DNA of 64,000 nucleotides from Eopsaltria australis (Eukaryota; Chordata; Aves; Passeriformes; Petroicidae): positions 3,045,501 through 3,109,500 of the forward strand of contig JAVTVJ010000069.1 of NCBI GenBank assembly GCA_034509425.1, written 5' to 3'. Positions 4,563 to 63,224 of this stretch are shown here, in pieces. The notes under the pieces were generated by a model. The model saw nothing but the letters and a program-made list of their open reading frames with translations, ran no database searches and had not been told where the DNA came from. Position numbers and translations under genes: made by a program. Numbering within the stretch: the stretch's first letter is position 1; the number at the start of each line of letters is the position of its first letter.

Positions 4563-4694
4563 CAGTCTGCAGGCTTCATTCCATCGACTGAACTTTTCTA
4601 ATGAACTCAGCTTCTCATCATCCTCTAACATTTCACAGGTAGGAAACCAGGCACTAACCATCAGAGGAAATGCATCTCTCAGCCATAGAATTTC
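4563..4694 (-). pseudogene. DNAH11: Exon-like block, possible dynein AAA5-region exon (tentative)
   Basis: A strong acceptor (TTTCACCTACAG) and donor (GTGAGT) bound an open 44-codon phase-0 block. The peptide includes FPL followed by EMLEDDEKLSS, which could correspond to IPL...SMLTDDA in the family, but spacing differs and most residues do not align. Its place, 3' of the stalk exons, is right for AAA5. It could equally be an unrelated exon-like sequence. The splice signals are clear; the identity is inference. Confidence 0.3.
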
Positions 4695-5329
4695 CTGTAG
4701 GTGAAACTTTTTGGATTTACATTTTATGAAGTGGGTGCCACATTCCCAGCTAGTTATAATTCTGGAAACAAATTTCCTTCTAAGCTTTGTAGATTGTTTG
4801 AAGTTCTGGTGCCTGCTAACTTGCAATTTATATTTTCTTTCCTTCTAGCTGCCAGTCCTGGGGAAGCTATCAATGTCTTTTGTTATCAGTGTCTTAATCT
4901 TATGCACTACTTACAGACATTTTGAGAATTTCCAGTCTGCCACATGGTTATTAGATAAAATTAGACATGTAATTAAAACAAGGTTACTCCAATCACTTTC
5001 AAATATTTTCTTTAAATAACATTTTAAATCCTCTCCATCAACAAGTAATTATATGGTTTCTATTCTATGAGTACAATAGATACAGAAATCATTTCTACTG
5101 CAAGTGTATGGAAGCTGTTTGGATATAGCATATATATAGGTAAGCAGTTTGTGGAATTCAGTAACTTCAATCACCTCACAAATGGAAAAAAGGATGACAC
5201 ATTAGATGAATATCCTATTCCTATCCGGAATTTGCAAGACATTCAAATAAACAATATTTTGCACTGGCCTGTGCAAAGGATTGCACTGTAGCTGAAGCTT
5301 TTGAAGTGAAGTGATTGGAGGGTGTAGAG

Positions 5330-5381
5330 TGGAGCACCTGAAAATGGTGACTGTGCATTCTTCCTGAGAGATGAATGTGAC
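5330..5381 (-). pseudogene. DNAH11: Possible remnant of the dynein exon before AAA5 (tentative)
   Basis: After a good acceptor (TTCTTGTGGTCCACAG) the frame reads VTFISQEECT, comparable to KSFEAQEKTL that precedes AAA5. The match fades within 20 codons and I see no donor. Position and order fit, but similarity is slight. Confidence 0.27.
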
Positions 5382-7149
5382 CTGTGGACCACAAGAAGCA
5401 GATACATAAATGCCCAAAAGAAATAGTTTGCCTAAAAAAAAAAATTTTGCCAATAATCCTCAGTACGGAAATGGTAGATTAAGATATGAATTATGGAAAT
5501 GTATACATTTTTTAAGGTTTGTCACATAATAAAACTGAATCTCTTCTTGGCATCTTCAAGTTCCTGGACTAAGTCACAGCTCAGTTACAAGAAACATGTC
5601 AAAACCAAGTTTCTTTGTGTGCAGGAGTTTTTACTGTATAACACTTGAATATTACAAATATATCTTAGTATACATAAGAGACACACTGCATAGACAGGTA
5701 CTTCCTATTCATTCTTCTGCTGAAGTTCATCTTATAATATACTATTGGGGGTAATCCAGTCCTACTCTCAACTCAGAACAGGGCTAATTTCAAAGTTGTC
5801 TTTGAATTCTTCATGATCAACTCCTGTGTCTTCTTTCCTAAGATACTAATAACAACCAGCAATCAAGCAGTATTCATAAAAAGTTCAAATATGCACTATT
5901 TTGTATTTGTCAACAGTGAATTTGGCCAACTATAGAGTTATCCATTCAACAACCCCATGAGCTTTGAAACTGATATTTATGAGCAATACCTGTTAGAGAA
6001 TTAAAAATTAAAGCTACAGTTTCTTAGAAAAGTTCATCAGGTGGATCAGCAAGGGTATCAATCAGTTATAAAAATAATAGTTTTAATGGGATCCTCCCAC
6101 CATGTAAAGGGAATCCTGGTTCAATATGCAGTATGGATTTTTTAAAGGGGTTAGTGAAAATATTCATAATAAATGACAGTATGACAAGTGTTGGCCTAAC
6201 AGGAAACAGACAAATGCAAAGGAATTGCCACTTTGCCTGTGGTGCAGAATTCTTCCTGTTAGGAACTAAGCACAGCTGAGAGAAAGACTGCTGCTAACAA
6301 CCCTCAGAAAAATGCATGAGGAGAGGAAAGGGGAAGTAAAAAAAAGGGGAAGTAAAGAAATGTAAAAAAAGAATGATTCAGGTTTGGAGGCTGATTTAAT
6401 GGAAGGTCACCTAAACCAGGAAAAGGTTATTTGAGATACTGTCAGGCAAGGAAGAGATGTATTTGTGCTATTAAAACAACAAAATATTCCATGAATTTCA
6501 GGGGTGACTGCTGTGTATTAAAAATAAGCAAAAAAATTTAAAAATATCTCCCCAAAACAACACTAGAAGCCCATTTTTGTCCAAAAGTGTTTGTACTTAA
6601 TAGACATACATCAGTAAGATGTGTGAAATAAAAAACATGATGCTTCCATAAAGCTGTCTTTTAGTGCAGACACAAGCTTCATTAGGGCAGATTTTGATCT
6701 AAATGGGCAACTCCAAAGTCAAAAGGCTAAGGCTGTTTCACGTGGAAGAAAAATACCTGCTGTAGCAGCTGATGGGATTTTTGGGGTGGGGGTCAGAGGG
6801 GTCAGAAGAGCAAGTGAGGTGGTAAAAGCTATCTTTGTTTACTGATTAAAAATGCATCTTCTTCAGTACAAGAAAAAATGGATATTAAAATAGCTGGAAG
6901 AAAACCAGGAAATTCCTGAAATAAAGAATTTAATTCTAAAATACCATAACTCACAGCTTTAAAAGAGTTTCCATAAAAGTGAATCTGGGTCATTCTTTTA
7001 AAATGCTAATTCAAAAGAAAACAGTGAGAATAAATGCCAGATTACAGATTTGTTCAGCCTTTGTTTATTGCTTGATATTTTAAATTGTGAGATTACAGAT
7101 CTAAATATTATCAACAAAAAAGTCTTAAGGAAGTCAAAGTCTTTTAAAC
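5382..7149. other. Presumed intron, nothing recognised
   Basis: AT-rich unique sequence with short A-rich tracts such as those near 6340-6370. No exon, repeat family or RNA gene recognised. Confidence 0.5.
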
Positions 7150-7285
7150 CTAATTAATGTCATAGTTTTCAAACCATTTGAAGATTTCTTTGCTAAAAAG
7201 GTTGATTAGCTTGCAGCAGAAACTCCTTCCACCCACCATCTCCCAAGACACCATAAGATGTCTTTGTATCAAGAGTGCTTTGTGC
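7150..7285 (-). pseudogene. DNAH11: Possible remnant of second stalk coiled-coil exon (tentative)
   Basis: One frame contains CKLINLFSKEI where the family has IKLANRLVKEL, with VSWEMV upstream against VRCQEEV. The site lies directly 3' of the 7.96 kb exon, as expected. No convincing splice sites remain, and several residues are missing before the KW that may match RW. Chance similarity is possible. Confidence 0.27.
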
Positions 7286-7871
7286 TGCAGTTGCTCCATT
7301 AAATGCACACTTAAATAACAAATAATCCCTCTCAGAACTTCAATAGATACTTGATGACAAGTGTGGTCTTCAATGACATCATTAACTCACAAGACACTTG
7401 TCAGTAAAAGACTAATCAAAGTTTCCTCTTCTATGTGGATGTGTGCACACATAAGTGTCTGTGTTTGTGGATCTTTCAAAACATCAGAGGACATTTGGTG
7501 TTGTTTTTATTATACGTTTAATGACAAACATTTAAACAAACAAACGTGAGCGTCTAAAGCCTTTTCTGGGCATTATTGCTATGCTCCAGTAGGTCATTAC
7601 CAGTATAAAAACTTGGCATATATTCCTTGTAAAACTCACATCCAGTTACTCCTGTCAACCACCATTTCAATTATCAATCTATTGGTTATCGTGTGCTTAT
7701 ATGGCTTTGAGGAAATTCAGATATTTTGGGTAAACAGCTTCATGTGCTGCCACCCAAACTGCAGAGTGTTCTTCAGTATATTTGTGGGGAAAATAGTGAT
7801 AATCCCTAATTGGAGCATGCCTTAAATATTTGAACTAGATAGTAATAAAATCAATAAAAATAAACCACATT

Positions 7872-7900: not shown

Positions 7901-7963
7901 ATAACAAAATTAAATGGGCTCAAGGTGTTGGAGAATGAAGACTATTAATCAAGCAGTACTTAC

Positions 7964-8083
7964 AAGAAGTACTAGGTGAAACACAGAGTTTTTCCTGATG
8001 GTTTCTAGATTTCCTGTAGCTGCTGCTAATTCAGTGTTAGCCTGAGCCAGCATACAACATTTTGGTTCTCTCTCACAATACAC
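7964..8083 (-). pseudogene. DNAH11: Dynein exon: base of second stalk coiled-coil strand
   Basis: Acceptor TTTTTCAAG and donor GTAAGT bound 40 open codons beginning VYCEREPK and running through [19 protein letters not shown], which aligns with the family VYCDVEPK...AQANLELAAATEKLEAIRK. This is where the stalk's returning helix starts. After IRK the frame diverges (NSVFHLVLL). One lost A in the run at RKK would restore a family-like KKL, so a 1-nt deletion is likely there. The upstream partner exon is at 8819. Confidence 0.9.
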
Positions 8084-8818
8084 CTTGAAAAAGACATACC
8101 ACATTGGTACATCAGAGAAGAAATTGGTCTCACTTTATTACAAAAATTACAAATGGCTCCTGATTAAAGACTTTCAGATATTCCTAGTAGTTTTTCATTA
8201 CATATCTTTGCTTTAGACCCATCTTTCTACACAATAGTGAGTCAGGCAAAGATTTTTTTCATTATTGACTACAACAGATTTTGTGATAGCCTATAGAAGG
8301 ATATCTTAAGCAGAACTGAATGCAACCTTAGTGGGTCTACTCTCCAACTAGAATTAATTTATATGTATCACTTTCATGATTTTAGGATACAGGTGGAAAT
8401 CACACAAGCATTACATTTGAGTAGATTTCATCTAAAATTGATAAGTTTTTTACTATTCTGTAATTAAGTGCAATCACACTATACTAGGATGAATGGAGAA
8501 ATCCTGCTGCCAGGTGCACTGCAGACAGCCAGACCCAGGATGGATGTTTCAAGTGAAACATGTACATCTGGAGAATATTTCCCAACTGTTGCATTGTAAT
8601 GACAACTGAAAAGTCCTGGAGAGCTACATCTTTTTTACTGCTTCCTTCTAAAAATAAATACATGTGTACATACTGCTAAGTACTGAACACTTCCTACTTT
8701 ATCTCTAGTGGCTGTTACATGCTCCCCAGAACACTAAGCTGAGCCTGCTAAATTAATAAAAAATTAATTAATGGAAATTCCCCCATCAGGGCCAGTTCAA
8801 GAGCTGATATACACATAC

Positions 8819-8982
8819 CTCATTGAATTTTACTGTATTGATGTCCCAGGCACAGAGACCAGCTGTTGCAAAGGATTTTGTATGAACATAATTTGGGCTG
8901 AAATCTGGATCCTTCAAGTAATGTTCCTTGGCGACCTTCAGACAATTGTGAGAAATATGCTCCTTATCATAGCTGATTAAAT
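8819..8982 (-). pseudogene. DNAH11: Dynein exon: microtubule-binding tip of stalk
   Basis: The frame is open across the exon and reads [40 protein letters not shown], closely matching the stalk-tip segment of DNAH11 (DKEHIPENCLKV, EHYLKDPEFNPN, TKSFAAAGLCAW). Acceptor TTTGTAAG and donor GTATGT are present. This is among the best preserved exons in the locus, with no stop or indel seen. Confidence 0.94.
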
Positions 8983-9538
8983 CTTACAAAGAGTTATCAA
9001 CCTGTGAGAAGTTCCAGTGTATATGATGTTCAAGTTTTTGAGAAGCAGAAGTTAATCCTACTTTCATCTCAAAGGTAAAACTGGAATCGTGCACTAGCTA
9101 ATTGGTTTAGAAATGTTATTCAGTACAAAGCAGAAGTATTTCCCCCAAAAGCCAGAAGTATTCACTGTCACAAACACAATTTGTGATACATGTCTCGCTT
9201 GAGGAATTAGGGAAAAATGGGATAAATATAATGAAATGCTCTCCCTTTCATTTTCTTCTATTTTTGCATTCAATAAATCCCAGTGGTGCTCAGGCTGGCT
9301 TGAGTTTTTCACCAAATGTACACAGAAAACAGCAATGCAGGGTCATATTTTCCTCCCTTAAATTCAAGCTGCAAGAAAATGAAGTTGTGATTTATTTTCT
9401 TTTTTTTTTTCTGACTCTCTTTTTAGACTATCATTTTCTTCTCTCATCTCAGATATTATCTGATGTCCCTTTGATAATTACCTTTCCTATAAAGACTTCT
9501 CTGGCTTTCCAGCTCCAGTCCTTGGGCCCTTTCCCTCT

Positions 9539-12800: not shown

Positions 12801-13153
12801 TACCTAGAGCCTCAAAGTCTCTAGAAAACTGAAGTGCTAAGAGATGACTCTTTGACCTTTACTGTATTACAAATAGGTCTGATTCTCAAGATCCACATCC
12901 ATTAAATGCTTCAATGAGCTCAGTATTTATTGTTCTTTCATCTCATTAGAACAGCTAAAAGGTTAGGAAAAGGCATAATGTAAAGAAAGGTCAAGTGGTA
13001 ATCATGGTGTGAAAGGCTGTTACACATGTAAGTATAATAATTCTTTAGATTTTATGCTCCCTGGAGAGGAAGTTGTTCAAAACTGTTCACCTAAAAAGGT
13101 TTATTTTGTGCTAAATATAGCTCAACATCAGTAAATAGGAGAATTAGACTGAC

Positions 13154-13300
13154 CTTTAGGTCCTCTGCATCTGCAATGGCCTTTTCTTGGCTCAGTTTTT
13201 CGGTCTGAAACCCTATCTTAGCAATCAAAGCTTCAGTATCGTGATTTTTCAGTTGCAGTTCTGCCTTTTGAACAGCAAGTTCGGATTTTAGATCCTCTAC
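13154..13300 (-). pseudogene. DNAH11: Dynein exon: first stalk coiled-coil strand
   Basis: Exactly 49 open codons begin [20 protein letters not shown] and end [13 protein letters not shown] before donor GTCAGT. This heptad-rich helix is the outgoing strand of the stalk. [12 protein letters not shown] is the residue stretch that best separates DNAH11 from DNAH9/17. The base pair before the exon at 13301-13302 reads AA where AG is required (CCCTGTAA then GTAGAG), so the acceptor is lost. The next AG would shift the frame. Coding sequence itself is intact. Confidence 0.94.
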
Positions 13301-16031: not shown

Positions 16032-16277
16032 CTGGAAAGTTACTGCCTTCCTTCTTTCTGAAGAAAGCTTCTGCATGCCATCTACCAAGTGCTCCATGTG
16101 TCGTGACATCTTCTTGCTTTTTTTTTTGTCTAGGAGGATATTAAAAATAATTATTTGCTCCAGAAAACTATTTGGAGTGGTGTAATTGCACTGCTTCTTG
16201 TTTTGTTTGTACTTGGCACTCAGGACATTCACACTGGTGTGGGCAGAAGCCATGAAATCCCCGTAAACCATGGAGTC
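16032..16277 (-). pseudogene. DNAH11: Dynein exon: end of AAA4 and start of stalk
   Basis: Open over 82 codons (phase 0 at both ends). It has acceptor CACTTGTGCAG and donor GTACAC. The frame starts DSMVYGDFMASAHTSVN and includes QCNYTTPNSFLEQIIIFN and EHLVDGMQKL, matching DSISLFMAHVHTTVN, HNYTTPKSFLEQISLFK and ERLVNGIQKL of DNAH11. NYTTP is the conserved lead into the stalk helix. No stop or frameshift is visible, though several otherwise conserved residues differ. Confidence 0.94.
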
Positions 16278-16350
16278 CTGCACAAGTGGCTGTACACACC
16301 CAAGGAAAAGGAAAAAATGGAAACACAGGAACAAAGAAACCCTTCCAAAA

Positions 16351-21718: not shown

Positions 21719-24700
21719 GCGGCAGCCAGGGAGCCTGGACCGGGTCCCGCAGCCCCGCACGGCCCCGGGAGGGTGAGCGCCCGCGGGTTCCCTGGAAGCA
21801 GCACCAGACATCCCTTGCCCTCTCCTTCACCTTCATTTCACTACTATTGCTGTGTTTTGTATGGGTCTGAATGGAGTGTAAACACTGCAAATACAGAGTT
21901 GCCTGGTGCTACACTCGGCTAAAATCTGACTGCTCTTCCTTGGGAATTCCTGAAATCATCTGTCTTACATGATTAAAACCCCCCTATACAAATAGATGGT
22001 CTCAAATATAACAGCACTCCAGAACAAAACTTCTGCAATGGCAGTCTCTGAAGCAAAGCAAGCATTTTCCAGACCTACATTAATAACTCCAGCAGTCTCA
22101 CTGCCAGCGTGGAAGTTGTTGCATGTTGTCCTGTGCTAGGACAGACATCAGAGGCAGCTTGCTAAAACTCTTAGAAAAACATGAGAATATTCCTCTTCCC
22201 TGAACAGAAACTCACTAATGCATGTGATTTGTTTGGGTTTTTTTTCTGAAAACAAACATGTCACACTGCATCAATCAGCAATAAAAAGAGAAAAGTTGCC
22301 CAGATGTTAAAATGTTAAATGCATTTGCCATGTGGTGCCATGGATTGCCTTTCTAGGGGAAATGTCTACCTGTCTAATTGCTGAATAGATGGAGGACTCT
22401 TTAGTTTGCCTGCACTGTACACAGCAATATTTCAGCCTCACTTGCTACAGCTCTAGTGAATATATTTAACTGCATTGGAAAGGGTTAAATAAACTCTGTA
22501 TCTATAAGATCTATCTATAAGAATTCTTGAATGGAAGGATTCTGCAAAGACAGTGTTATGAGTTACATGCTTCTCTTTCCCTCACTTCTCTGCCTGTGCT
22601 AGACAGCTCCCTGATATCTTCTGAAGGAATCAGGCAGTAACGTATCATTAAAATTCAACTTCTAGCAGGGGTGAACTTGAACAACACCAAAGGCACTAAG
22701 TATGCAGGAAGGAGTAAAAAGAGTGTTGCTTTTTCCCAGCATCTTCAGTTATTGATCTTTCAGTGATGTCCATTGCTTCCTTAGGAAAATGACAAGCTTG
22801 AAACTGTACCTTGACCCCTTGACCTCAGGTTCCTCACTGAACCTCCTACTGCTGGAAATTCCCAGCTCATGCTCACAGGATGGCACTGATGGGACAGAAA
22901 CACAGGACAATCTGCAGAGAGGGGGAATAGGGAGAGAAAAGAATCAAATGGCAAATTGAAGCCAACAAAGAGAGGCATGAAATGACCCATGGTCTAGTAC
23001 CAGCCAGGACACAGCTGAGGCTCCAAGCCACATTTGGCAGCTAATAAACTTTGTCAGAAACCTTGGGCAAATAGGTCTTGCTCCTTTTCCCTTGTACAAA
23101 CCTGGCACCTTCCACTGTCTCCACATTGGTATCTGTATCTCATGGTGACAGAAACCCAGTTCTTGAGTTTCTAAATCTATTTAAGCCTCTGTAATATGCA
23201 GTGAGACTCCTCTAAAAGAGCAGGAAGAATAGGAGATTTGGATCTCAGTTTGCATGGGAATTTTAAAGGATGATTCTTAATAAAATTGGAAAGAGATGTC
23301 CAAAAAGGGTAGGCCAAAATATTCACAGAAAAATAAAACTGACTGGGTCTTGATATCACCAGTTCTACATGAAACAACTTGCATTTGAGAAGGAAGGGTT
23401 ATTCTAATCCTCAGTCGAGTCCGTGAACCTACTTATTGCACACGCTTTGGCCTTTGTATATGTTCTTTGTTAATTGACATGAAAGACATCAGGCTGTTAA
23501 GACAGGAATGAACTCTGTCCTCTATGCTTCTTCCTAAAGGAGCTATATTTATTGCACAGGGCCTCTCAAACCATATGTCACTGATGATGTTAATTCCAAC
23601 AGAAAACATCCAAATGGTTTCACAAGAGTTTATAACTTGTCCAACAGCCACAAGAGCCAGGGCAGAGCCCAGTCAGGCATGCCAGGGAAGTGACAAGTTA
23701 ATTCTTACTTTGGACTAATTGGGAATTGACATTCCTATTAAGAGAAAACTGGATTAAAAAGGAAGAAGAGCAGAATGTTGAAAGAAAAGAAGTAAAAAAA
23801 GAAGTGAGAAGATGTTGACCTGGCTCAATACTTCCCTGAGTTTTAAAGCAGTCAGATAGGAGAGATAAAGTGATAAGGAGATAGTAACAACAGAAAAAGG
23901 TTCAATGGTATCTGGAAAGAAGATTAAATGGAAAATGGAAAAGAATTGCCATAGTTTCTAAAAACACATCTCCTCACTAGAAAACATAAAACAGGAATTT
24001 ATGCAAATAAACCAGATAGTAGAACCAAGTCAAACCAAGAATACCCAGGTTGTCCAGAAATGTTACAAAGATAGGCCAATCAGCAAGTTGGCTTAAGGTA
24101 CAGAAGAAATCATCTTCTTTGAATGTTTGAAGGGGCAAATGGCAGAAATGTCCATGTAGAATTCCAGCCAAGTGGTGAAAATTACACTAAAATTGTACAA
24201 AGATACAGAAAGACCTTGGAATTTACTGGTGATGAGAAAGATGGGCACACACAGAAGAAACAAACGAAAAGATGCAAGTATAAATAGTCTCTACCACAAA
24301 ACTCTGAATCAGAGAAGAAAAAAAAGTAGGGGAAGGATCTGCTTGGTCTTTTTCATGACTCTTGAATATTGTTGCGTTTTCTGTATTTGGTTCTTGGTTA
24401 CACTATGTATCCTTCAGTTAGACATTGTTTCTCCCTCATGTCACCTCATTTTCTGAAAAAATTCAGTGCTCATTTTAATACCAAGACTCATGGTGAGCAA
24501 TGTTGAAGCCCAGGGAACCTAATTTCTCTTCTTTATTCCTGTAGTAGCCACTTTCTCAGACCTGCACACCATCCCTGCTGTGGCAGCAGCAGCAATGGAG
24601 AGCCTGGAGAGATCTGTCCCTGCTTTGATGTGCTTCTCACAAGTGCCCTTGCTACAGCAGTGGTGCCAAACTGAATCTCTCACACCTCCAAAGCTGCAAA

Positions 24701-37521: not shown

Positions 37522-37624
37522 CTGGAGCTTAGGCTTGATAATGAAGCGGTCAGCAGCTGGATTCATATAGGCAACACACTGAAAATTATGAATTTCTTTA
37601 ATAGTTAGATTCTGCCTATCATAA
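37522..37624 (-). pseudogene. DNAH11: Dynein exon: AAA3 sensor region, both splice sites lost
   Basis: The coding frame is open and recognisable: YDRQNLTIKEIHNFQCVAYM then NPAADRFIIKPKLQ, against [20 protein letters not shown] and NPMVGSFTINPRLQ. However, the donor after CTCCAG is CTAAGG (CT at 37520-37521 instead of GT). The acceptor dinucleotide at 37625-37626 is AA (TTTCTCAA) instead of AG. The exon therefore could not be joined normally even though it has no stop. Confidence 0.94.
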
Positions 37625-39725: not shown

Positions 39726-39917
39726 CAGTGTCCATAATCAATGTGCTGCTGAATCAGTGCATGAGGCTGAACTGTTCCTTATCTATCCACCACAGGCAAC
39801 AATAAATTAAAAAAAAAAAAAAAAAAAAAAATCACCAATAAAATAGAAAAGTTTCTCATTCTTGTACTGGAACATAGGTATGACCAGGTTCTTTCTCCAG
39901 TTTTTTTTCAAATATCT
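39726..39917 (-). pseudogene. DNAH11: Dynein exon: AAA3 Walker B, disrupted by poly(T)
   Basis: From acceptor TTACATTTCAG the frame, joined to the 44.6 kb exon, reads KIFEKKLEKEPGHTYVPVQ (family KILEKPLEKKAGHNYGPGG). An extra base shifts it before NEKLFYFIGD (family NKKLIYFIDD). A run of 23 T in gene sense (39809-39831) replaces the next codons of IDDMNMPEVD. Then PVVDR, a TAA at 39779-39781 in place of tyrosine, and GTVQPHALIQQHIDYGHW up to donor GTGAGC (family GTVQPHTLIRQHIDYGHW). Confidence 0.93.
39809..39831. repeat. Poly(A) run of 23 nt inside a former exon
   Basis: Uninterrupted A run on the plus strand, lying within the AAA3 Walker B exon between the codons for IGD and PVVD. It may be an expanded homopolymer or the tail of a tiny retroposed insert. 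Confidence 0.92.
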
Positions 39918-44645: not shown

Positions 44646-44851
44646 TCTGGAGCACTGCTGATGTCGTGTGGTAGTTGAATGAATTGTTGGCCAAGAGGAA
44701 GTCTTCAGAGACAGCACCAAGCCTATTGCCTATGATTGCCTATTTTTCCTACTCCAGCATTTCCAATAAGCAAGACTGCTTTGCATTTTATTACGAGTAT
44801 ATCAATGAAGTACTGGAGACAGACAGTCTGAAATGTGTGAACAAAGATTGA
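44646..44851 (-). pseudogene. DNAH11: Dynein exon: AAA3 P-loop, frameshifted
   Basis: Acceptor TTTTCTGTTTTAG and donor GTAAGT flank the exon. It reads SIFVHTFQTVCLQYFIDI then LVIKCKAVLLIGNAGVGK, aligning residue by residue with LVHTTETARLRYFMEL and LLEKGKPLMLVGNAGVGK. The Walker A lysine is kept (44744-44764), but the next residue is Ile instead of Thr/Ser. A small duplication (ATAGGCAAT twice) then breaks the frame. The right frame resumes as RLGAVSEDFLLANNSFNYHT then TSAVLQ (family [26 protein letters not shown]). Confidence 0.93.
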
Positions 44852-46812: not shown

Positions 46813-46960
46813 AGCTTCCACTCCAGGTCCTGCGGTTTCGGGTGATGACTTCCAGCTCTGGATATTGCAGCTGGAGCAGCAGCTCTTAAATGTGTACCTC
46901 AAACAGCAGCCACATTGACAGTGTCACAGGCATACATTCATTGTTTGTAAAGGCCAGAAC
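46813..46960 (-). pseudogene. DNAH11: Dynein exon: AAA2 sensor region, frameshifted
   Basis: Acceptor GATTTCTAG and donor GTGAGT are intact. The frame starts VLAFTNNECMPVTLSMWL then LFEVH (family VLTLASNERIALTPFMRL, LFEIH). A one-base deletion near 46890 would run the frame into TAA. In the shifted frame it continues LRAAAPAAISRAG and PKPQDLEWKL (family LRSATPATVSRAG and VNPQDLGWNP). The ATPATVSRAG motif, a hallmark of dynein AAA2, is still clear. Confidence 0.94.
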
Positions 46961-48009: not shown

Positions 48010-48137
48010 CTTGTTAGCATCCATAACAGCGTTGAGGGACTCAGTCTACATATGATCTATATCCCTATTTAAAACAAACTTTTTTGGCTCCTCACGGATA
48101 ATATTGGCTTGTCCTCTCAGAGAAGATGACAGGAGAC
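48010..48137 (-). pseudogene. DNAH11: Dynein exon: AAA2 Walker B, one stop
   Basis: Acceptor TTTTATTTGCAG and donor GTGAGC bound the exon. It reads LLSSSLRGQANIIREEPK, KFVLNRDIDHM, a TAG at 48046-48048, then TESLNAVMDANK. The family has LFSSILREQANLKHDGPK, WIVLDGDIDPMWIESLN, TVMDDNK. The invariant tryptophan of DPMWIE is now TAG, and the Walker B LDGD has become LNRD. Confidence 0.95.
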
Positions 48138-48684: not shown

Positions 48685-48817
48685 CATCTTTCCACTCTGT
48701 GTGTTCCTGGTGTATAAAACCACACAGTTCATCAGCTGTCAGAACTTTTGGATTAAGCTCATTCCGAATGGGCATTTCTTTTTTGTTCACATAAATGTGG
48801 TGGAGAACTTTCAGAAC
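48685..48817 (-). pseudogene. DNAH11: Dynein exon within AAA2, open, GC donor
   Basis: Forty-four open codons plus one base follow acceptor GCTTCTCTTCAG: VLKVLHHIYVNKKEMP, then NELNPKVLTADELCGFI and TEWKDG. This matches ILRTLNRTYVNMKQKP, NDLNPKAVTTDELFGFI and REWKDG. The donor is GCAAGA rather than GTAAGA (48683-48684). This could be a functional GC-AG intron or a T to C decay event. Phase 1 joins the 48.0 kb exon correctly. Confidence 0.95.
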
Positions 48818-49484: not shown

Positions 49485-49562
49485 CTTATCCTTTCTACTC
49501 CCTGCAATTCCAACAACAAACACAGAGTGATACTCTGCTGGTTGCTCCTCCAGCTGAACATC
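49485..49562 (-). pseudogene. DNAH11: Dynein exon: AAA2 P-loop, motif corrupted
   Basis: Twenty-six open codons (phase 0) with acceptor GCGTGGTAG and donor GTATCT: DVQLEEQPAEYHSVFVV then GIAGSRKDK. The family has VVQLEELLAVRHSVFVV then GNAGTGKSK. The Walker A GNAGTGKS is changed to GIAGSRKD (about 49488-49511). The glycine before lysine and the Ser/Thr after it are both replaced, so nucleotide binding at AAA2 would be lost. No stop. Confidence 0.93.
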
Positions 49563-50970: not shown

Positions 50971-51165
50971 TCTGAGCATAAAGTTCTCTTCTGGCTGCAA
51001 GTACAGCTCCAGGGTAGATTATTTAACCATCTGCTCAAACTGTAGGTTCCTCGTCCTCAAAACATCCAGAGCTGGAAACAGGTCACTGAACAGGCCTGTG
51101 AAAATTGGGATATCATCTGTCACTATTTTATGCAAATTGAAGTCTCTTAAGGCTCACATAAGCAC
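50971..51165 (-). pseudogene. DNAH11: Dynein exon: AAA1 end to AAA2 start, two stops and lost acceptor
   Basis: Sixty-five codons: VLM, TGA (51154-51156), [42 protein letters not shown] (51019-51021), STLELYLQPEENFMLR, donor GTAAAA. The family reads [49 protein letters not shown]. Both stops replace Arg or Gln codons. The acceptor reads TTTTTCAT before GTG, so AG has become AT (51166-51167). Confidence 0.95.
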
Positions 51166-52129
51166 ATGAAAAAGGAAGGTAAACAATATATCACAAGAGC
51201 ATTAAATCCTTTTTTTAGGATTCTGTTTTTATTCAAAGGCAAAACACGAGAAACAAGTTTTACCCAGTTCTCAGGTCTGTTCTTGCCTCCATCTTTCATG
51301 GACCCAGAAATTACCAAAACTGACTTGATAACATGAAGTCCCCAGTCAAAACAGCTCTACAAAAACATTTTAACTAGTCATGTCAGCACACAAAATAAAT
51401 AAGGTGGTAATGTTTAGGAAGAAAACAATTTTACACACAGAGTAGAACAAGATATTTTTATTCACTTGTAGTCTTTTAGTGGCTTTTGGTCAGTGTTAGA
51501 GGTTGACTAAAAAAGTTAAAGTCTGAAATATATATATCTGTATATCTATTTAATTTTCAGTATTTCACCATTTGGTTCCTTATTCTTAACTGGCTACCAG
51601 CTGGGTAAAGTTTGAAAACATATTCTGCAGCCACACATAGGAATTCAATATAAATACAGCCTATTAGCATTATCATCCCCCCCACCCCCAAAAATGGAAC
51701 AAACAAGCCCCCCAAAAAACCCCACAAAACAACCACAAAACTGGAAGCAAATTCACAACTTAAAAACGTACCATTTCAAGTTGACAGATGCCATGCCTCT
51801 ATCCTCTTCCATTACAGGGGTAACTCTACAAGTGTGAATCAAATGCACTGAATACATGACAAAGAGTAATAAAAAAAAAGTAATTTTCAAATTCAGGACC
51901 GTTCATGATCAGTAAGAAAAAAAATTTCTGATGTAATAAAAATGCCAATTATGTCTACAGAAAAGACCAGGAAATTTAGAAATATACTATGCTTAATAAG
52001 ACTTTTGTTAGATTTAGACAAGTTTGTGGGGTGTTTTTCCAAATTTTTTTTGCTATTTTCCTCTCTGAAAAGGTGTTAAAGAGCAAGATATGCATCTCAA
52101 AAGCAGCCCAGTGTGTGCACTGTCCATTG

Positions 52130-53408: not shown

Positions 53409-53547
53409 CTGTTCAGGGAGCAGCTCCCTGCAGAGAGGTTAGAATGTGATGAACTTCCTGGCTAACAGACAGGAATCAATAAACCCTTGAGCAGCCAACA
53501 TCATTTCAGAGACCAGTTCAATGTCAGGAACAACTATGGCACAGGTT
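53409..53547 (-). pseudogene. DNAH11: Dynein exon: late AAA1, one stop
   Basis: Acceptor TTTCTTCCCTAG and donor GTGAGA bound the exon: [38 protein letters not shown] at 53439-53441, PLCRELLPEQ. This matches PCAMVAPDIELICEIMLVAE, GFVDARALARKFITLY, TLCKELLSKQ. The tyrosine codon of ITLYTLC has become TAA. Everything else in the exon remains readable. Confidence 0.95.
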
Positions 53548-54321
53548 CTAGGGAAGAAAAAACCCCCATAATCCAAATACACAGATTAGTATTTAAACAT
53601 GGCAAGAATGTCAGTTAAATCAAATGTCTGATGTGTGCAAACATTTTTAAAATCAGAGCTCAAGAGAATCACAATTAAGATTGTCAATCAAAGCTGACAA
53701 GGACTCTAGTTCAAAGCAAACAGAACTAATTAGGCACTGATGATTGTTAGTATTCCAAAACACTGCTGCACAAAAGAGGCATCTCAGAAACACAGACAGG
53801 TACTGCCCAAACCCAGAACAGGCACAGGAAGCAGTGGTGTCACTTGCCGCTGATCTCTGGAGCCAACAGCTGCACAGTCATTGCTACAAATGCCATCCTT
53901 TTTTTAAGGACTTTGATTTCTTTTTGGAGAGGTTTAGTGCATTTATATGAGGGTTTGGTTGTCTTTAGAGGTTTTACTATTTCTTTTCTAAATATAACTG
54001 CTCAAACTTTTAGGAAAAAAACACAGAAATTTTAATAACACAAATGAGGAAAAATCTCATTAAATCTCATTTTTAGAGTAATGCAAATAATAATGTTATT
54101 GTTAAACAATTTCCTCATTTAAAAGCATTAAGTTACATACTAGCAAAGAGGAGATCTTGGATTTTGTGTTCAGGCCAGCTATAAACCAACAAAATTGTCC
54201 CTCAGAGCTCTTCCTTACTACTGAAAAAGCCCAAATATTTATTTTGTTCACCATTCAGAAATATACTGCTGAACAAAATGACCAGTTTTAATTTTGTCAT
54301 ATTTAAGTATGAATGGGGAAC

Positions 54322-54426
54322 CTGAGGTTCTCATGTAGCCCTGTGTGACCTGCACATCCAGGGATCATAGTAATAAATATTCCAAATCTGGATTTCAGTG
54401 TAATATTTTCACCAAGAAATACAAAT
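54322..54426 (-). pseudogene. DNAH11: Dynein exon: AAA1 sensor loop
   Basis: From acceptor TTTCTTTTAACAG the frame is open: [18 protein letters not shown] then [17 protein letters not shown]. The family has FVFLGEAITLKPSVGIFI and TMNPGYAGRTELPENLK. The near-invariant NPGYAGR motif has drifted to IPGCAGH, including loss of the sensor asparagine. The last codons (ALFR) are missing. The exon may end at AACCTCAG before GTTCCC, a poor donor, so the 3' border is approximate. Confidence 0.93.
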
Positions 54427-54439
54427 CTGTTAAAAGAAA

Positions 54440-54560
54440 GATAACACAAAGAAGTGCTAAAAGATGCCAGGATGCATGAGTGTATCTTTTTGGATCACTT
54501 ATTTTAACAAGAAATTCCATATTGGAGCAAAAACACATACACAAAAAAGTTTCCCTGTAT
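54440..54560 (-). pseudogene. DNAH11: Possible trace of AAA1 P-loop/Walker B exons (tentative)
   Basis: One open frame reads CMCFCSNMEFLVK and then THASW, which could correspond to VYVFNCSEQMDYKS and QTGAW of AAA1 with deletions. The P-loop (GPAGTGKTE) and Walker B (CFDEFNR) are not recognisable, and fewer than 500 bases separate the flanking exons. Confidence 0.27.
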
Positions 54561-54602
54561 GTGGTGTTAAAAAAAATAAATTGGTTTGGACTTTCACAAA
54601 TG

Positions 54603-54620
54603 AAAAAAAAAAAAAAAAAA
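54603..54620. repeat. Poly(A) run of 18 nt
   Basis: Uninterrupted A run between the two AAA1 exons, in the interval where the AAA1 P-loop exon should be. Confidence 0.9.
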
Positions 54621-54912
54621 CTTTGCTGAAAACTCCTGCTTAACTTTGGCAAAGATCTGCTCGTATTCCCCTTCAGACTAGGCAATGAAAATATAGATTA
54701 AGTTACGCAAAAAATATTTCAGTTATTATAAATGTAATGGCCATTAAAATCATACCATTTCTTAAGACTGCACATCTACATGCACACAGATATTGTGTCT
54801 TGATAACCTTATACATATGAGCTAGGAAAGAACACATAACTTCTAAGAAACTTTTACCTTTTCATTCACTGAAACAGATAAAGCGGGCACTGTTATTTGT
54901 AGCAGTCATTAC

Positions 54913-55073
54913 CTGTCAGTCAAAGGTGTAATAACTTGCCAATGGATATTTCCCAAGTACTCATAAAAGTACTGAAACTGAGCATCACAAGTGTTGGCAA
55001 AACAGTGTTTCTGGACGCTATCCCATCTCTGGCATAGCTGTGACAGTCAAGCACAAGCTCTGGGACTGGAGAC
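54913..55073 (-). pseudogene. DNAH11: Dynein exon: end of linker / start of AAA1, one stop
   Basis: Acceptor ATGGCTCCTAG and donor GTAATG bound 53 codons plus two bases: VSSPRACA, TGA (55047-55049), [41 protein letters not shown]. The family has [49 protein letters not shown]. The TGA replaces a conserved tryptophan. The next family exon, carrying the AAA1 P-loop, is not found downstream. Confidence 0.95.
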
Positions 55074-55529
55074 CTAGGAGCCATCAAAGTGTCATGATGC
55101 CAGGTAGGAGCTGTTCAGGTGGTAGAAATGGCACCCATCACAAAGCTGCAGCTGCCATCAGCAGGTCTCACACCTCACTCCTAGCCACTTATGACTAATA
55201 ACTACTACAACCTATTAACAAAGGATTAGATGCACCTCGAGGCACTTGTGCTTTTATATAAATGCAAGTGTAACAGAAGATAATTTTAATAGAGCTATTA
55301 CAGCAAAACACGTCGTCATTTATCAAGCCAAGACCTCTCTGTGCAAACAGTGCAGCCTTTGAAAAGGAATTGACATTACTTTGACCACAATGAGTTTCAT
55401 TTTACTCCTCAAGCCTTGTTTCTTCTTATCTTAATGCCACTTTAAAAGCCCATTTTATTTCTGAGGCTCAGGGGGAAAATAAGAATTCTTTCCTAATTGA
55501 ATCCCAATCCGGTGAAATATTTTGTTCGT

Positions 55530-55635: not shown

Positions 55636-57180
55636 TTGTAAAAAGTTACCGCTGGAAGAGTGACTTGCTTTGGAGATGCACATGCCTCTGAAAGGACAAC
55701 AAAACACACTGTGAATTACTGAAGGCAGAACAAAATGCGAGTGCAAAATATAGCTGATTCAAACAAGCACCTTCTGGGCTTGAAGGCTTGCTGCTACATC
55801 TCTGCCATGAGCATCTCTGGTGCAAATGGCCATGATTTTTTCATGGTCACCTGAGGAAAGTTCTCCAAGCAGCATGGTAATAAAGAGCATTTAGCTCAGT
55901 GACCCAAAAAGATTTAGGTAACCCTCTAAAACCAGGTGGCTTCCTGTACCATCTACCATCATTACTACTAGAAATTAGTTCTGCCTACATCATGGACTAA
56001 ATCACCATAAAAACTAGCTTGTACATACAAATTTTCTGATGTTAAACATGAGATGCCAGAAAAATGAGATGCTTGGTTTGAACAGAAATTTGAACCATCT
56101 CCAGAACAATGACAATCCAGGTAAGCATTAATACTGCAGATGGTCAGCTAGGCAGGGTAGGAGGATTGGATGGGAAGATGTACATGAAATGGAATTGAAA
56201 ATCCTGTGGTTATAATCTCCATAGAGATATGTACCAGACTTTGCAAAAATTGTACAAGAACATTTATTGGCAAACTAAAAATAGTCATTAGGAAAGATAG
56301 GAGGCATTTTAAAAATAGAGCAATAAGGGGATGATTACAAAATACGATATAAATGACTACACAGAGTTATATAATAAAAAATTACTATGGAATTATTCAG
56401 GTTTCATATTAATAGGGGGGAAAAACCCCAATCTCAGCTACTGCATGTAGTTCTAAGGAGGAAAATATAAAAATATATGGAATTATCAAAAGAAAGATAT
56501 AATGCCTTTTTCTTACAGGGAAAGTTTAGACACTTCTATCAGATGTTCATGACCCTTTAAAGTCTCTTTCCTATTTTGTATTTCCCTTCAGCAGATATTC
56601 TATGGTGGAAAACAAAATCAAAACCACTGGAAGTTTTCACAAAGAGTATTCATAGCAGGATAAAAACTTACTCATAGCTTGAGGTAAAAAAGGGCAAAGC
56701 AAAAATCAAATGGCACAAGGTATCCTTCCGAAATGGGACCAAAAGTAAACATAGACATAAACTGCTAGGTTTGACATAAAACCAATAGTTTTGGCTTCCT
56801 TACACAAATATATGGGTGTAGTATTTGTATACATATTGAAAGTGTACTTTGTTTTTAGCACATCTTTGTGGCAGTATCTTTGCATTTCACTTTTGTCTCA
56901 GTTCAAAATAATCTCACAAAACCTCAGTAATTAAGATGTGATAAAAATGCCCCTGAGGTAGCACAAATGGAAGAAAAAGCCATGTTTTTTTTTTTTTCAG
57001 TAGGTGCTAATAGCAGCTTATTTACTACAGGATTAAAATTATTTTATATGTAAACTATGGTTTAATATGTTCTATTAATATGTTAATATGTTTAACATTT
57101 AATGTGTAAACTATATTAATATGACTATTTTCACACAATATTTGTTTTCTCTGAATTAAACAAAAAGGAAATGTCCATAC

Positions 57181-57382
57181 CTGCTTCTTGTGGCAATCCT
57201 TCAGGGCTGATACCAAGCCCTCTTTCAGCCTACCAGATGCCATTTCTGCATCTAAAACCCACCAGGTTTGTGAAGCACTAAGTTCAGCCTGGGCTGGGTG
57301 GTCAAAAACTCACTGCTCTCTGCCTCCATGGAGCAAAGATACAGTGTGCAGTTTCCTCAAGGGGTAGCAACCAAGACTCCAC
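57181..57382 (-). pseudogene. DNAH11: Dynein linker exon, frameshift and stop
   Basis: Acceptor TTTTTTGCTTCAAAAG precedes VESWLLPLEETAH (family VETWLLQLEQTMQ). The frame then shifts, with an apparent loss of several codons. In the new frame a TGA (57310-57312) replaces the tryptophan of RELWIFDFPAQ, followed by VFDHPAQAELSASQTWWV, AEMASGRLKEGLVSALKD, CHKKQ and donor GTATGG. The family has IFDFPAQVALTSSQIWWT, GIAFSRLEEGYETALKD, FHKKQ. Confidence 0.94.
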
Positions 57383-58446: not shown

Positions 58447-58596
58447 CTGACCATTAGATCTACATTTGTCATGGAACAGAACATACTCCTTTTCTGTGCT
58501 GTACATCCCAAGGGCAACATTTATCTGTTCCTCTGTATTCTCTTGAAATTTAAGATCAGAAACATTGTCAAAAAGTTTGGTACAATGATGGGCTAT
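58447..58596 (-). pseudogene. DNAH11: Dynein linker exon, open but donor lost
   Basis: Fifty open codons: IAHHCTKLFDNVSDLKFQEN, TEEQINVALGMYSTEKEYV, LFHDKCRSNGQ. The family has VTRHLAKLFDSIADLQFEDN, AVGMYSKEKEYVPFQAECE. After GGTCAG the donor is ATATGT rather than GTATGT (58445-58446). It does not fit a minor-class AT-AC donor (ATATCC). No AG immediately precedes the first codon either; the nearest, AAAATAG, lies inside it, so the acceptor is doubtful. Confidence 0.94.
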
Positions 58597-59816
58597 TTTC
58601 ATCCAAAAATACCAGATGTATAAGGAAACCATTTACATTAGATTTGTGTCAATCACACTAAAGCATGCCTCTGTTAAAGTGGATGACTCTGACTGTTGCA
58701 TGATTACTACACATGAGAATTTTAATGGGAAAAGCTGGGCCAAAATGATAAATCAGTGATTGGAGTTAATTACACTTAAGAGTCAGAAGAGTCTGAAGGA
58801 CAAAGCTCAATATGAAACTGAGAAGTCTTGAAATTGTTGTTATTATTTATGGCTAATGCTTATTTTACAAATTGCCTATTAAGATGTAAATGCCTTTTGT
58901 AGCTACATACCTCTCCAAAGACCATGGGATTTGAAGATCACTGTCTACACACCAGCATGCTCTATTCCTGACACCTAGAACAGAAGACTTGCTTGCCTGC
59001 CTTGTATGTGGATGAAACAAATCACTGAGATTTAGTTAAGTGAAGAATCTATGAGGGCCTACCATCATGTTTGAAAAGGCTACATGTTGAAGCCTCACAA
59101 GTCCTTCATCATCTTGGAAAACAACTCACAGCCCTTCAAAAAAAAGGTTTTGCCTGAGGTACACTAAAAACTGTAACACTCAGAGAATTGATGGCTGTGA
59201 CCAGATAGTGACTGAGGCCAGGAGCATCACCTGGAATGTAGGTAATGTAGTATGAAGCTTCTGAAATACACCAAAGTGCCTGTGCTTTTATACAAATTGG
59301 TGTCACAAAAGCTAGTAGATTATTGTTCAAGGGAGGAACACAGAAGGATAGCTACAAAAACATTCCTTGTGCAAGGGTCAGCAGCTCAGTCAGTAGCAGC
59401 CTACCAGGCACCATAGATCTTTCAGTCTTACTTATCATCACTATGCATTGCTTGCCTGAAATTTGATCAATCTGCGCTAGAAGAAGAATAGATTTGATGA
59501 TCTCATTCACCTTTTCCATTTCTAATTCCTGCAAACCTGCAACCCAAAAATCCAAATAAATGCAACTTCCATGTGGCTCATTTCCAGCAAAGACAGACTG
59601 ATATTTGTAACGTCTCTCATCTCTTGCTGAACACCTTGTACTTGTCTTAGCCGGGGGAAAAAAATGTTTACTACCTTTCTTAGGCAAAATGTTCCTACTT
59701 TCAAAGTAAATTAATGCTCAGAAGCAAAGGTGCATTTCAATATTTTCAGCTCACAAGGTTAGCTGGAAAACTTTCTGTAGAGAAAATGAAGTACATTAAT
59801 ACACAAAGAGGCTCAG

Positions 59817-59943
59817 CTGTGTTGGCTGCGCTCCTCTTTAAAGGATGTCTAGCAAGTCTGCTGAGAAACCAAAATAGAAGAGAGGAAAAAGTATGTACTT
59901 GCTTTCTAAGTATTCAGCCAAAGCTTTTTCACAAAGAGACTAT
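59817..59943 (-). pseudogene. DNAH11: Dynein linker exon, two stops and lost donor
   Basis: Acceptor CTGTTTTTCAG is intact. The frame set by the 61.1 kb exon gives TAG at 59940-59942, then [36 protein letters not shown] at 59838-59840, RGAQPTQ. The family reads [38 protein letters not shown]. The donor after ACACAG is CTGAGC instead of GTGAGC (CT at 59815-59816). Confidence 0.95.
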
Positions 59944-61092
59944 CTGAAAAACAGATTTTAATGACATGTGCCTTTAATCACCTTAAAGCCACGAATTCCC
60001 TCCCAGTTAAGGTAAAAATCAGACTAATCATTAAAACATAACAATGCAATCCACTATTAATTTATAAAAATGATGAGCACAGCTGTAAGGAACAGAGAAG
60101 GTGGCAAACCTTTCAAGCTTCCTTTCCTGAAAATGAAAGGGAACATAATCTTTCGTTCATTCAGACCAAGTAAACCAAGGGAATGGAATTGTGCTAGAGA
60201 AGTCCCTCAAAAGCTAAGTCTGGCCAGGGGGAAACTCCACTTCAACCTTCCAAAGAGTCCAGACTTAGAAAGTAAAAAAAAAAAAAAATTTCTAACTCAA
60301 CAGGGCAGTTATGTGTAGATAAATTGAAAAAGAAAACCACCAAAACAACAAAGAGAGAAGTAGATAAGAATCAGTTGAGTGGGGGAGCAAAGTAAGACAC
60401 ACATATTATTTTTGATGAACAAAGAGTTAAAAACATGAAAACATATGTTGGTATTGACACAAAAAGTATTAAGGATCAAAATACTCAACTATATGTCTAT
60501 CTGGAAAGAAAAAGAAGCTATATTTATGTTTGACTGGTGCACTCCAGCTGTTAGCTTGGTGTCTCAGAACAAAAGCAGTATCTCAAGAAATAGGTTTGTG
60601 TTTGGGGTTTTTCTAACTTGCTATTGCAACATTTTCCTCCAAGAAGAAACAGTCTGTGACTCTAAACATTGCAGCCTTTAAAGCCAGGAAGAGTGAATGC
60701 CAGTGGGAAGTTCAAGGCATTCCTTCAATTGTGTGGAAGGAGGACTACTTTGGTTACAGAATCCACTGCCTCCTGTTGCAAGGGTGAACAAAGGACCCCC
60801 AGCTCCCAAAGTGTGGATAGGGAGAAATGTTCTGTTTGGATCAAATTCACTACTTTTAAGACATTTGACAATTTTGACATCATGCCACCCCTAAATAATG
60901 AACCAACGCCTCAAGTTCAATTGGTTATGTAAAGAGCAGTACAAATCCAGTGTGTCAAATAGAAACAAATGACAAAAATATCATCGGAACATCGCACATC
61001 TGGATGAAAAGGAAACAATCTGACAGCTCTCATTTCCTGCTTGTTGCAGAACTACACTTTAGAACAGTTTGTGATCATACTGGAAATTTTAC

Positions 61093-61184
61093 CTCTGCTG
61101 CAGAGCTTCAAAGCTTTCATACACCTTTGGCTTTCTTGTAGCTTCCATCACATTTTCTTTATTTGTTATTTCAGTCACCAACTG
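61093..61184 (-). pseudogene. DNAH11: Dynein linker exon, intact
   Basis: Acceptor TTTCTTTCTGTACAG and donor GTAAAA bound 30 open codons plus two bases: QLVTEITNKENVMEATRK then PKVYESFEALQQR. The family has KLMFEAVKTPNVIEATNK and PRLYEKLEDIQKR. The phase joins the next exon. No lesion visible. Confidence 0.93.
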
Positions 61185-62149: not shown

Positions 62150-62282
62150 ACACCACATGCATTGAAATTCCATCCAAATGGAAATGACAGAATCTGCCAT
62201 GTTTAATTTACTTTGCCAGCCTTCCACTTGGTTCAATGAAATACATCACATATTTACTCTTCAGAATCATTTGCATTTGAAA
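62150..62282 (-). pseudogene. DNAH11: Dynein linker exon, frameshifted, 3' half unrecognisable
   Basis: The frame reads FQMQMILKSKYVMYFIEP, matching VQLQNLMTSKYVEYFIEQ. An extra base at about 62228 then shifts it to VEGWQSKLNMADSVISIWME (family VSGWQNKLSTVDAVISIWME). After that only WCLHQSNY against WSHLESIF is arguable, and the remaining 25 or so codons (GSEDI...DIDFK) cannot be found. An AG sits before the first codon shown (TTTTACTAG), but it may be decayed coding sequence, so the 5' border is uncertain. Confidence 0.9.
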
Positions 62283-62714
62283 CTAGTAAAACAAACAAAA
62301 CAAAGAAAGCCAGAAAAACAGCACTAATCCAAATTATTTATCAGAGGAACTAAAACTAACAAGAGCTTAACAAATTCTCCTGTAATTGTTATTATTGTAT
62401 ATCATAAGAGAAGACATCTTTAAATACTGAAAATGGACAGCATATTATTAAAGGACTTTTTTTTATATTGAAGGAAATACAAGCTTAGAAAGCTATTACT
62501 TTTTTAAACTCCTACATGGAGACAGGAATGTTTTTAGAATACATATAGTAACACAGCATACACGTAAATTCCCAGTACTAACATCTGGAGAAAATATAAA
62601 TCTGCAATAAAGATTCAGGAAAAAAAGTTTTAACTAACCAAGTATATCAAGGGAGTGAATAATATTGATACAATAATAATACTGTTATTAATTAAATTCT
62701 TATTTGATTGTTAC

Positions 62715-62826
62715 CTAAAGTTTCAGGCAGCTGTTCAAAGGACTTTAATAAAGGAATTTCTATTTTCTTTTGCTGTTGGTAAGAAAATTCCATGGCAGTC
62801 CATGTTTCGCTGATTTCTTCCAAAAC
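62715..62826 (-). pseudogene. DNAH11: Dynein linker exon, intact
   Basis: Acceptor ATTATTCCCAG and donor GTAACA bound 37 open codons plus one base: VLEEISETWTAMEFSYQQ, then KIEIPLLKSFEQLPETL. The family has VLEEISETWTAMEFSYE, MPLLKSDEQLFETLE. This marks the start of the linker (DHC_N2) domain. No stop or indel. Confidence 0.95.
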
Positions 62827-63105
62827 CTGGGAATAATAACAGCAATAATAACATCTCTCTATATGTATCACATTTCATATTTGGAATTGAGAGCTTTAAT
62901 TAAATTATATGTAATTCATAGTGATGGTAAACTACACCACAGATAAGCAGTTCATTTTGCTAGGCTGTGAATTTTGATACCTAGGTAAGTCACATGAAAA
63001 TATTCAGTACTACAATTAATTCCTTGCAACAAAACCGAAATAAACAAATAGATTTTTACATAATATTCTGCAAAAACAGAAGAAAAAAAAAAAAGCATCT
63101 CTCAC

Positions 63106-63224
63106 CTTTTCAGTACTCAATTCTTGCACAACATTGACAACTACACTTTGGACTTCATCTTCTACCTTTATGGAACTGGAGTCCCAGAAGGTCTGACAAG
63201 GTTTTCTTCTACTGAAAGCCTGAA
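63106..63224 (-). pseudogene. DNAH11: Dynein exon just before the linker, open
   Basis: Acceptor TTTCTTTACAG and donor GTGAGA bound an open frame: QAFSRRKPCQTFWDSSSI, then EDEVQSVVVNVVQELSTEK. This corresponds to the segment ending VRDIVVxAVQEQxIEK that runs straight into VLEEISETW. It is the most 5' exon I can identify; earlier tail exons should lie beyond the window. Confidence 0.85.

What the first reader, a model, noticed from the sequence alone, without database searches (positions are those of the whole stretch)
4563..63224. An almost complete DNAH11-like dynein gene has decayed in place
Twenty-seven exons in correct order, strand and phase, carrying at least 15 in-frame stops, six frameshifts and about six lost splice dinucleotides. 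Retained introns show it was a spliced gene. DNAH11 is an outer-arm ciliary motor linked to left-right asymmetry in mammals, so its loss in a bird would be physiologically notable. I do not know whether such a loss has been described.
Basis: partly seen in the sequence, partly recalled or inferred. Interest (0 to 1): 0.88.

Follow-up and report, generated by a model that had tools for sequence, protein, structure and literature searches.

The report
Dead DNAH11 cilia-motor gene, bird-like genome
A bird-like genome carries, in its ancestral chromosomal place, only the rotted remains of DNAH11, a cilia-motor gene whose mutation randomises left-right body layout in mice, and no working copy was found elsewhere in that genome.

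Summary
The minus strand of the window carries the middle part of a dead, spliced outer-arm dynein heavy-chain gene. One fixed-threshold count gives 26 exon pieces (1101 codons) with 14 stops and 9 frameshifts; six further pieces add 3 stops and 1 frameshift. The collinear chain scores 895 against 117-127 for three controls. The AAA1 P-loop and Walker-B exons were not found. The remains run past both window ends, to a Dynein_C exon 39 kb downstream.

It is DNAH11 by position. CDCA7L-type exons lie 1.6 kb beyond its 3' end, tail to tail; an SP1-4-type exon, taken as SP4, lies 35 kb beyond the upstream window edge on the same strand. Two related genes cluster with mammalian DNAH17 and DNAH9, and a genome-wide search found no fourth such locus.

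Two rough clocks, excess divergence 0.142 and stop density near 0.15, suggest decay for tens of millions of years, so the loss is probably clade-wide (inference). No report of DNAH11 loss in birds turned up. Species, reads and expression could not be tested. It is a unitary pseudogene: known kind, notable gene.

The parts
63106..63230 (-). tail/linker exon remnant (DNAH17 exon e20 equivalent), 2 frameshifts, acceptor lost
   Evidence: frameshift-tolerant alignment score 59
61098..61184 (-). e21 equivalent, splice sites kept
   Evidence: score 61
59814..59945 (-). linker (DHC_N2) exon missed by the DNAH17 gene model, 1 internal stop
   Evidence: Pfam DHC_N2 7.7e-6; score 136, shuffle maximum 35
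58447..58596 (-). linker (DHC_N2) exon e23
   Evidence: Pfam DHC_N2 3.4e-6; score 111
57181..57321 (-). e24-e25 remnants, 1 stop in the e24 part
   Evidence: scores 42 and 61
55783..55903 (-). e26, 1 frameshift, acceptor lost
   Evidence: score 107
54915..55087 (-). e27, 1 stop, 1 frameshift, acceptor lost
   Evidence: score 164
54429..54911 (-). gap where the AAA1 P-loop (e28) and Walker-B (e29) exons should lie; neither found
   Evidence: scores 23 and 26, shuffle means 25 and 22, shuffle maxima 34 and 27
54321..54425 (-). e30 (AAA1), 5' part not aligned, donor lost
   Evidence: score 96
53409..53543 (-). e31 (AAA1), 1 stop
   Evidence: score 150; Pfam AAA_6 3.7e-18
51267..51350 (-). e32a
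   Evidence: score 82
50971..51165 (-). e32b, 2 stops
   Evidence: score 201; Pfam AAA_6 1.6e-10
49485..49559 (-). e32c
   Evidence: score 59
48686..48817 (-). e33, donor lost
   Evidence: score 105
48010..48135 (-). e34, 1 stop
   Evidence: score 99
46818..46960 (-). e35 equivalent, 1 frameshift
44647..44842 (-). e37 (AAA3 P-loop), 1 frameshift
   Evidence: score 136; Pfam AAA_7 1.1e-5
39728..39915 (-). e38, 2 stops, 2 frameshifts
   Evidence: score 102
37522..37623 (-). e39, acceptor and donor lost
   Evidence: score 91; Pfam AAA_7 2.7e-4
36848..37087 (-). e40-e41, 1 stop
   Evidence: scores 46 and 64; one continuous match with the recalled reference
35423..35574 (-). e42, 1 frameshift
   Evidence: score 101; Pfam AAA_lid_1 1.2e-7
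32968..33099 (-). e44 (AAA4), 2 stops, 2 codons deleted in the P-loop
   Evidence: score 102; PDB match
31286..31408 (-). e45a (AAA4)
   Evidence: score 137; Pfam AAA_8 2.8e-6
30377..30496 (-). e45b, 2 stops
   Evidence: score 84
22847..22911 (-). e46, 2 stops, 1 frameshift; weakest piece counted
   Evidence: score 43
16059..16289 (-). e47a
   Evidence: score 127
13142..13300 (-). e47b, stalk; donor lost
   Evidence: score 153; Pfam MT 3.9e-13
9482..9535 (-). e49, stalk
   Evidence: score 56
8816..9004 (-). stalk exon, 1 stop
   Evidence: Pfam MT 1.6e-23; score 234 with recalled reference
7982..8092 (-). stalk exon
   Evidence: score 110, shuffle maximum 27, recalled reference
918..1028 (-). 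stalk exon
   Evidence: score 91, shuffle maximum 31, recalled reference

Best explanation
The window is the middle of a unitary pseudogene of DNAH11, the axonemal outer-arm beta-type dynein heavy chain. Shown: the gene was a spliced multi-exon gene and decayed where it stood, between CDCA7L and SP4; the two exons of its main ATPase site are not found, it has gained many stops and frameshifts, and this assembly holds no other locus of its kind beyond DNAH9 and DNAH17. Inferred: once the lineage no longer used motile cilia to set left-right asymmetry, DNAH11 was left with a role that DNAH9 can cover (both pair with DNAH5), so purifying selection lapsed and the gene decayed over tens of millions of years. 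The remnant itself makes no motor. Its consequence would be cilia whose outer arms use DNAH5-DNAH9 along the whole axoneme.
For: Dynein families in gene order. Chain 895 against 117-127. Lesions and splice sites. Synteny: CDCA7L-type zf-4CXXC_R1 exons C64:3003977-3004126 and 3004799-3004933 (+), the single stop flagged in the first being its acceptor TAG, next to a Dynein_C remnant C64:3006537-3006734 (-) with a stop and a frameshift; SP1-4-type exon C64:3144211-3144396 (-) and a further SP-type exon C64:3415467-3415721 (+). Tree: C138 with bovine DNAH17, C1313 with human DNAH9, C64 outside both, nearest DNAH9; AU p 0.042, 0.021 and 0.0086 for three placements inside those clades. No fourth beta-type locus. 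Excess divergence at codon positions 1+2 of 0.142 (0.103-0.186), similar at position 1 (0.129) and 2 (0.152), as expected without selection. Stop density fits d about 0.15. Redundancy: passages of PMC7817014. Birds without a ciliated organiser: passages of PMC5872349 and PMC10126504.
Against: Nothing found against pseudogene status. The SH test did not reject two of the three inside-clade trees (p about 0.27), and C64 joined to bovine DNAH17 was not tested. 33 of 69 DNAH17 exon predictions were not chained in the 84 kb searched, partly because the gene runs beyond it and some predictions are wrong. The neighbours are named from one domain each. Chicken, said to lack motile organiser cilia too, has an annotated DNAH11 (PMC4447378), so loss of that role alone does not force gene loss. 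A live DNAH11 may evolve faster than DNAH9 and DNAH17, which would make the divergence clock too old.
Confidence: 0.93

Rival explanations
1. A duplicated (segmental) dynein pseudogene, with the working DNAH11 elsewhere in the genome.
For: Dynein fragments do lie alone elsewhere (C682, C3429, C1777, C708). The assembly may be incomplete.
Against: The remnant sits in the ancestral place between CDCA7L and SP4. The only other beta-type loci found are DNAH17 and DNAH9. Of the lone fragments, C682 and C3429 are nearest C125, C1777 nearest C61, and C708 matched nothing held.
Confidence: 0.03
2. Assembly or base-calling errors in an intact gene.
For: Reads could not be inspected; indel errors occur in long-read assemblies.
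Against: There are stops in frame as well as frameshifts, two conserved exons are missing, splice sites are lost, and codon positions 1 and 2 carry 0.142 excess divergence. The CDCA7L and SP4 exons read show no such damage, and the DNAH17 model aligns to the bovine chain over 620 and 708 query residues.
Confidence: 0.02
3. The locus lost motor function but is kept as a shorter protein or a non-coding transcript.
For: Not excluded: transcription was not tested, and several exons keep open frames and splice sites.
Against: Lesions are spread along the gene, and excess divergence is similar at codon positions 1 and 2, which shows no protein constraint over the 496 codons compared.
Confidence: 0.05
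4. The decay began recently, in this species alone.
For: Many exons are still recognisable at roughly 40-70% identity to DNAH17.
Against: Two rough clocks give neutral divergence near 0.14-0.15 per site, far above a species-level age at bird rates (rates recalled).
Confidence: 0.1

Closest known systems
DNAH11 (dynein axonemal heavy chain 11) of mammals; chicken DNAH11 annotated on chr2 (PMC4447378, passages)
   Same: Gene order and strand relative to CDCA7L and SP4 (mammalian order recalled), exon order, outer-arm beta-type sequence
   Different: Here the AAA1 ATPase exons are not found and the frame is broken throughout; no motor can be made
Losses of the ciliary genes WDR93 and CFAP46 in landfowl, geese and other birds (PMC10445033, abstract and passages)
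   Same: Lineage-specific decay of a motile-cilia gene in birds
   Different: Those are central-apparatus parts; this is an outer-arm motor heavy chain. The paper's main text has 0 occurrences of 'dnah'
Loss of the left-right gene Dand5 in reptilian clades (PMC10126504, passages)
   Same: Same context: symmetry breaking without motile cilia
   Different: DNAH11 is present and expressed in chameleon kidney and otic vesicle and annotated in chicken, so its loss here is a separate event

Membership tests
DNAH11 orthologue (by ancestry) | Lies between SP4 and CDCA7L in the vertebrate order and orientation (mammalian order recalled) | tested here: met
   neighbours named from one domain each
DNAH11 orthologue (by ancestry) | Outer-arm beta-type heavy chain, closest to DNAH9 and DNAH17 | tested here: met
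DNAH11 orthologue (by ancestry) | Branches outside the bird-mammal DNAH9 and DNAH17 clades | tested here: met
   AU p 0.042, 0.021, 0.0086 for three inside placements; SH rejects only the last; sister group unresolved
DNAH11 orthologue (by ancestry) | Clusters with database DNAH11 of other vertebrates | not testable with these tools
   No DNAH11 record held.
Working DNAH11 motor | AAA1 P-loop and Walker-B exons and an open frame | tested here: not met
Unitary pseudogene | Disabling lesions throughout a once-spliced gene | tested here: met
Unitary pseudogene | No functional copy elsewhere in the genome | tested here: met
   limited to this assembly, and the tool scores only the best candidates
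Unitary pseudogene | Functional in relatives | tested here: inconclusive
   Chicken annotation in PMC4447378; not checked as sequence
Unitary pseudogene | Lesions supported by raw reads; no productive transcript | not testable with these tools
   no reads or RNA-seq available

The most novel reading that the evidence does not exclude
DNAH11 was lost tens of millions of years ago in the ancestor of a whole bird order or larger clade, so that all its species build these outer dynein arms from DNAH5-DNAH9 alone: a natural knockout of a human ciliopathy gene across a clade.
Probability: 0.55. Interest if true: 0.65.

Novelty: new member of a known kind. Interest (0 to 1): 0.5.

Why it matters
DNAH11 mutations randomise situs in iv mice and underlie human primary ciliary dyskinesia. 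A lineage that has lived without it would show which DNAH11 roles are dispensable once the ciliated organiser is gone, would test whether DNAH9 can serve the whole airway cilium, and would date the lapse of constraint after birds changed how they break symmetry.

Tried and rejected
A protein search of the large predicted-protein database with one exon stretch found no homologue. A scan for four dynein P-loop patterns on both strands found none in the window, later explained by the missing AAA1 exons and the damaged AAA3 and AAA4 loops. A Pfam scan of the plus strand of the 10 kb below the window for CDCA7L was empty; CDCA7L lies about 41 kb below the window. I considered C64 being DNAH9 or DNAH17 and rejected it by tree and synteny. 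I considered C1313 being an intact DNAH11 and rejected it: it clusters with human DNAH9. In a shorter comparison C1313 was only slightly closer to DNAH9 than to DNAH17 (413 against 392 bits). Species identification by globins was tried and never answered. A genome scan for PF12781 was asked once, not answered and not repeated. Structure prediction was not used: a broken protein would not inform. One search was a script error, redone. The paper search was badly built and uninformative.
Full report
What is there. The window is C64:3045501-3109500 of a 1.17 Gb assembly in 5919 contigs. Read-through scans of the minus strand find only dynein heavy-chain families, in the order of the gene from high to low coordinates: linker DHC_N2, AAA_6, AAA_7, AAA_lid_1, AAA_8 and the MT stalk (empty). 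PDB sequence search of one 15-kb read-through frame gives two chains, DNAH17 and DNAH9.

Reference and chain. This genome's contig C138 carries a compact heavy-chain gene that I modelled exon by exon; it is DNAH17 (PDB bits 1219 against 1119 for DNAH9 over 620 residues; 1176 against 964 over 708). The gene finder forbids stops inside exons, and the model has errors, such as a 23-residue stretch absent from the PDB chain and a missed exon. Its 69 predicted exons chain collinearly to 84 kb of C64 (window plus 10 kb on each side) with score 895, 36 of 69 exons used; antisense, reversed and complemented controls give 127, 125 and 117. Links of 16-20 bits are at noise level, since the controls also collect 43-46 such links, and they are not counted as exons.

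Lesions. With a frameshift-tolerant aligner, 26 pieces inside the window scored at least 43: 1101 codons, 571 identical to DNAH17, 14 stops and 9 frameshifts. Below the threshold were e24 (42, 1 stop) and e43 (35, no lesion). A further DHC_N2 exon at 59814-59945 scores 136 against a shuffle maximum of 35 and has one internal stop (Pfam 7.7e-6). The AAA1 P-loop and Walker-B exons, among the most conserved of any dynein, score within the range of shuffles in the 483 bp where they should lie. Kept splice dinucleotides, 15 of 19 acceptors and 13 of 17 donors within 4 nt at hand-picked edges, many with pyrimidine tracts, show it was a spliced gene and not a processed copy.

Extent. The remains continue downstream (exons e50-e52 in L033) to a Dynein_C exon at C64:3006537-3006734 with a stop and a frameshift, and upstream to at least e17 at window-equivalent 66472. 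So the window holds the middle of a locus of over 100 kb.

Identity. zf-4CXXC_R1 exons, taken as CDCA7L, lie at C64:3003977-3004126 and 3004799-3004933 on the plus strand, 1.6 kb from the last dynein exon and tail to tail with it; both read open with splice sites, and the one stop flagged is the acceptor TAG. The only other such locus is on C29. This is the mammalian order SP8-SP4-DNAH11-CDCA7L (order recalled). In a tree of 993 columns (572 for C1313) C138 joins bovine DNAH17 (99.5/99), C1313 joins human DNAH9 (96.5/86), and C64 lies outside both, nearest DNAH9 with weak support (73.7/64). Of six trees tested, three placements of C64 inside those clades have AU p 0.042, 0.021 and 0.0086; the SH test rejects only the last; C64 joined to bovine DNAH17 was not tested; the outgroup was two Chlamydomonas chains joined. 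GC content fits a macrochromosome for C64 (window 37.7%, flanks 36%) and small chromosomes for C138 and C1313 (51-60%).

No second copy. Family scans for AAA_8 (42 matches), AAA_6 (69) and Dynein_C (46) fall on the same eleven loci plus C64 and four lone fragments. The fragments on C682 and C3429 are nearest C125, that on C1777 nearest C61, and the one on C708 matched nothing held. A direct search with the DNAH17 AAA4 stretch gives 20 matches on 12 contigs, all among these loci. In the stretches held, no other locus approaches DNAH17 over the AAA1 exons as C1313 does (694 bits against at most 409); over AAA3-to-stalk exons the contrast is weaker (375 against 256 for C181), since only part of each locus was held.

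Time. Over 496 codons shared by the three genes, C64 has 0.142 more substitutions per site at codon positions 1+2 than its paralogues (bootstrap 0.103-0.186), with similar excess at position 1 (0.129) and position 2 (0.152), as neutral decay predicts. Position 3 also shows an excess (0.535), but it is large everywhere and affected by GC content. A simulation needs d of about 0.15 for 14 stops in 1318 codons, the count at threshold 45, which includes flanking exons. At bird neutral rates of 2-3 per billion years (recalled) this is roughly 45-75 million years. Both clocks are rough: well-kept exons are easier to find, and live DNAH11 may evolve faster than DNAH9 and DNAH17.

How it came about (inference). 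Passages of PMC7817014 state that DNAH11 fills the mouse node cilium but only the proximal part of tracheal cilia, that its mutation hits nodal far more than other cilia, and that a DNAH5-DNAH9 or DNAH5-DNAH11 pair is suggested to suffice. A review passage says birds and reptiles have likely lost the ciliated organiser (PMC5872349). Freed of that role and backed by DNAH9, whose exons were open where read (about 20 kb), DNAH11 could decay. Chicken still has an annotated DNAH11 (PMC4447378, passages) and chameleon expresses it in kidney and ear (PMC10126504, passages), so the loss is later than the change of mechanism.

Novelty. Ten paper searches were made; those bearing on DNAH11 or dynein loss in birds listed no paper describing DNAH11 loss in birds. 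Three of them showed only part of their hits (30 of 48, 25 of 1709, 15 of 15,882); I saw titles, abstract starts and some passages, and the library holds only open-licence papers. Loss of other ciliary genes in birds is published (PMC10445033).

Noticed in passing
C682:946776-946922 and C3429:42574-42723 (L037, L035): Two closely similar lone copies of an AAA1 Walker-B dynein exon, nearest the C125 heavy chain, with altered core motifs; perhaps a duplicated dynein fragment.
   Followed up: partly
C1777:22153-22308 (L036) and C708:1460591-1460746 (L038): Lone dynein-like exon matches; C1777 is nearest C61 and C6, C708 matched no held locus.
   Followed up: partly
whole genome: 141 matches to a C2H2 zinc-finger query (150 of 2061 candidates scored), many near 45-57% identity on small contigs: an amplified zinc-finger family.
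   Followed up: no
window 45934-46115, 9540-9695, 3038-3173: Stretches that match fetched parts of other loci in several frames; likely interspersed repeats inside the decayed gene.
   Followed up: no
PMC8375169, Table 1 (passage): A tetrapod survey lists 159 for Dnah11 but 239 for its neighbour Sp4 in the column Ngene; it might reflect missing DNAH11 in some clades, or only the difficulty of a 4465-codon gene.
   Followed up: no
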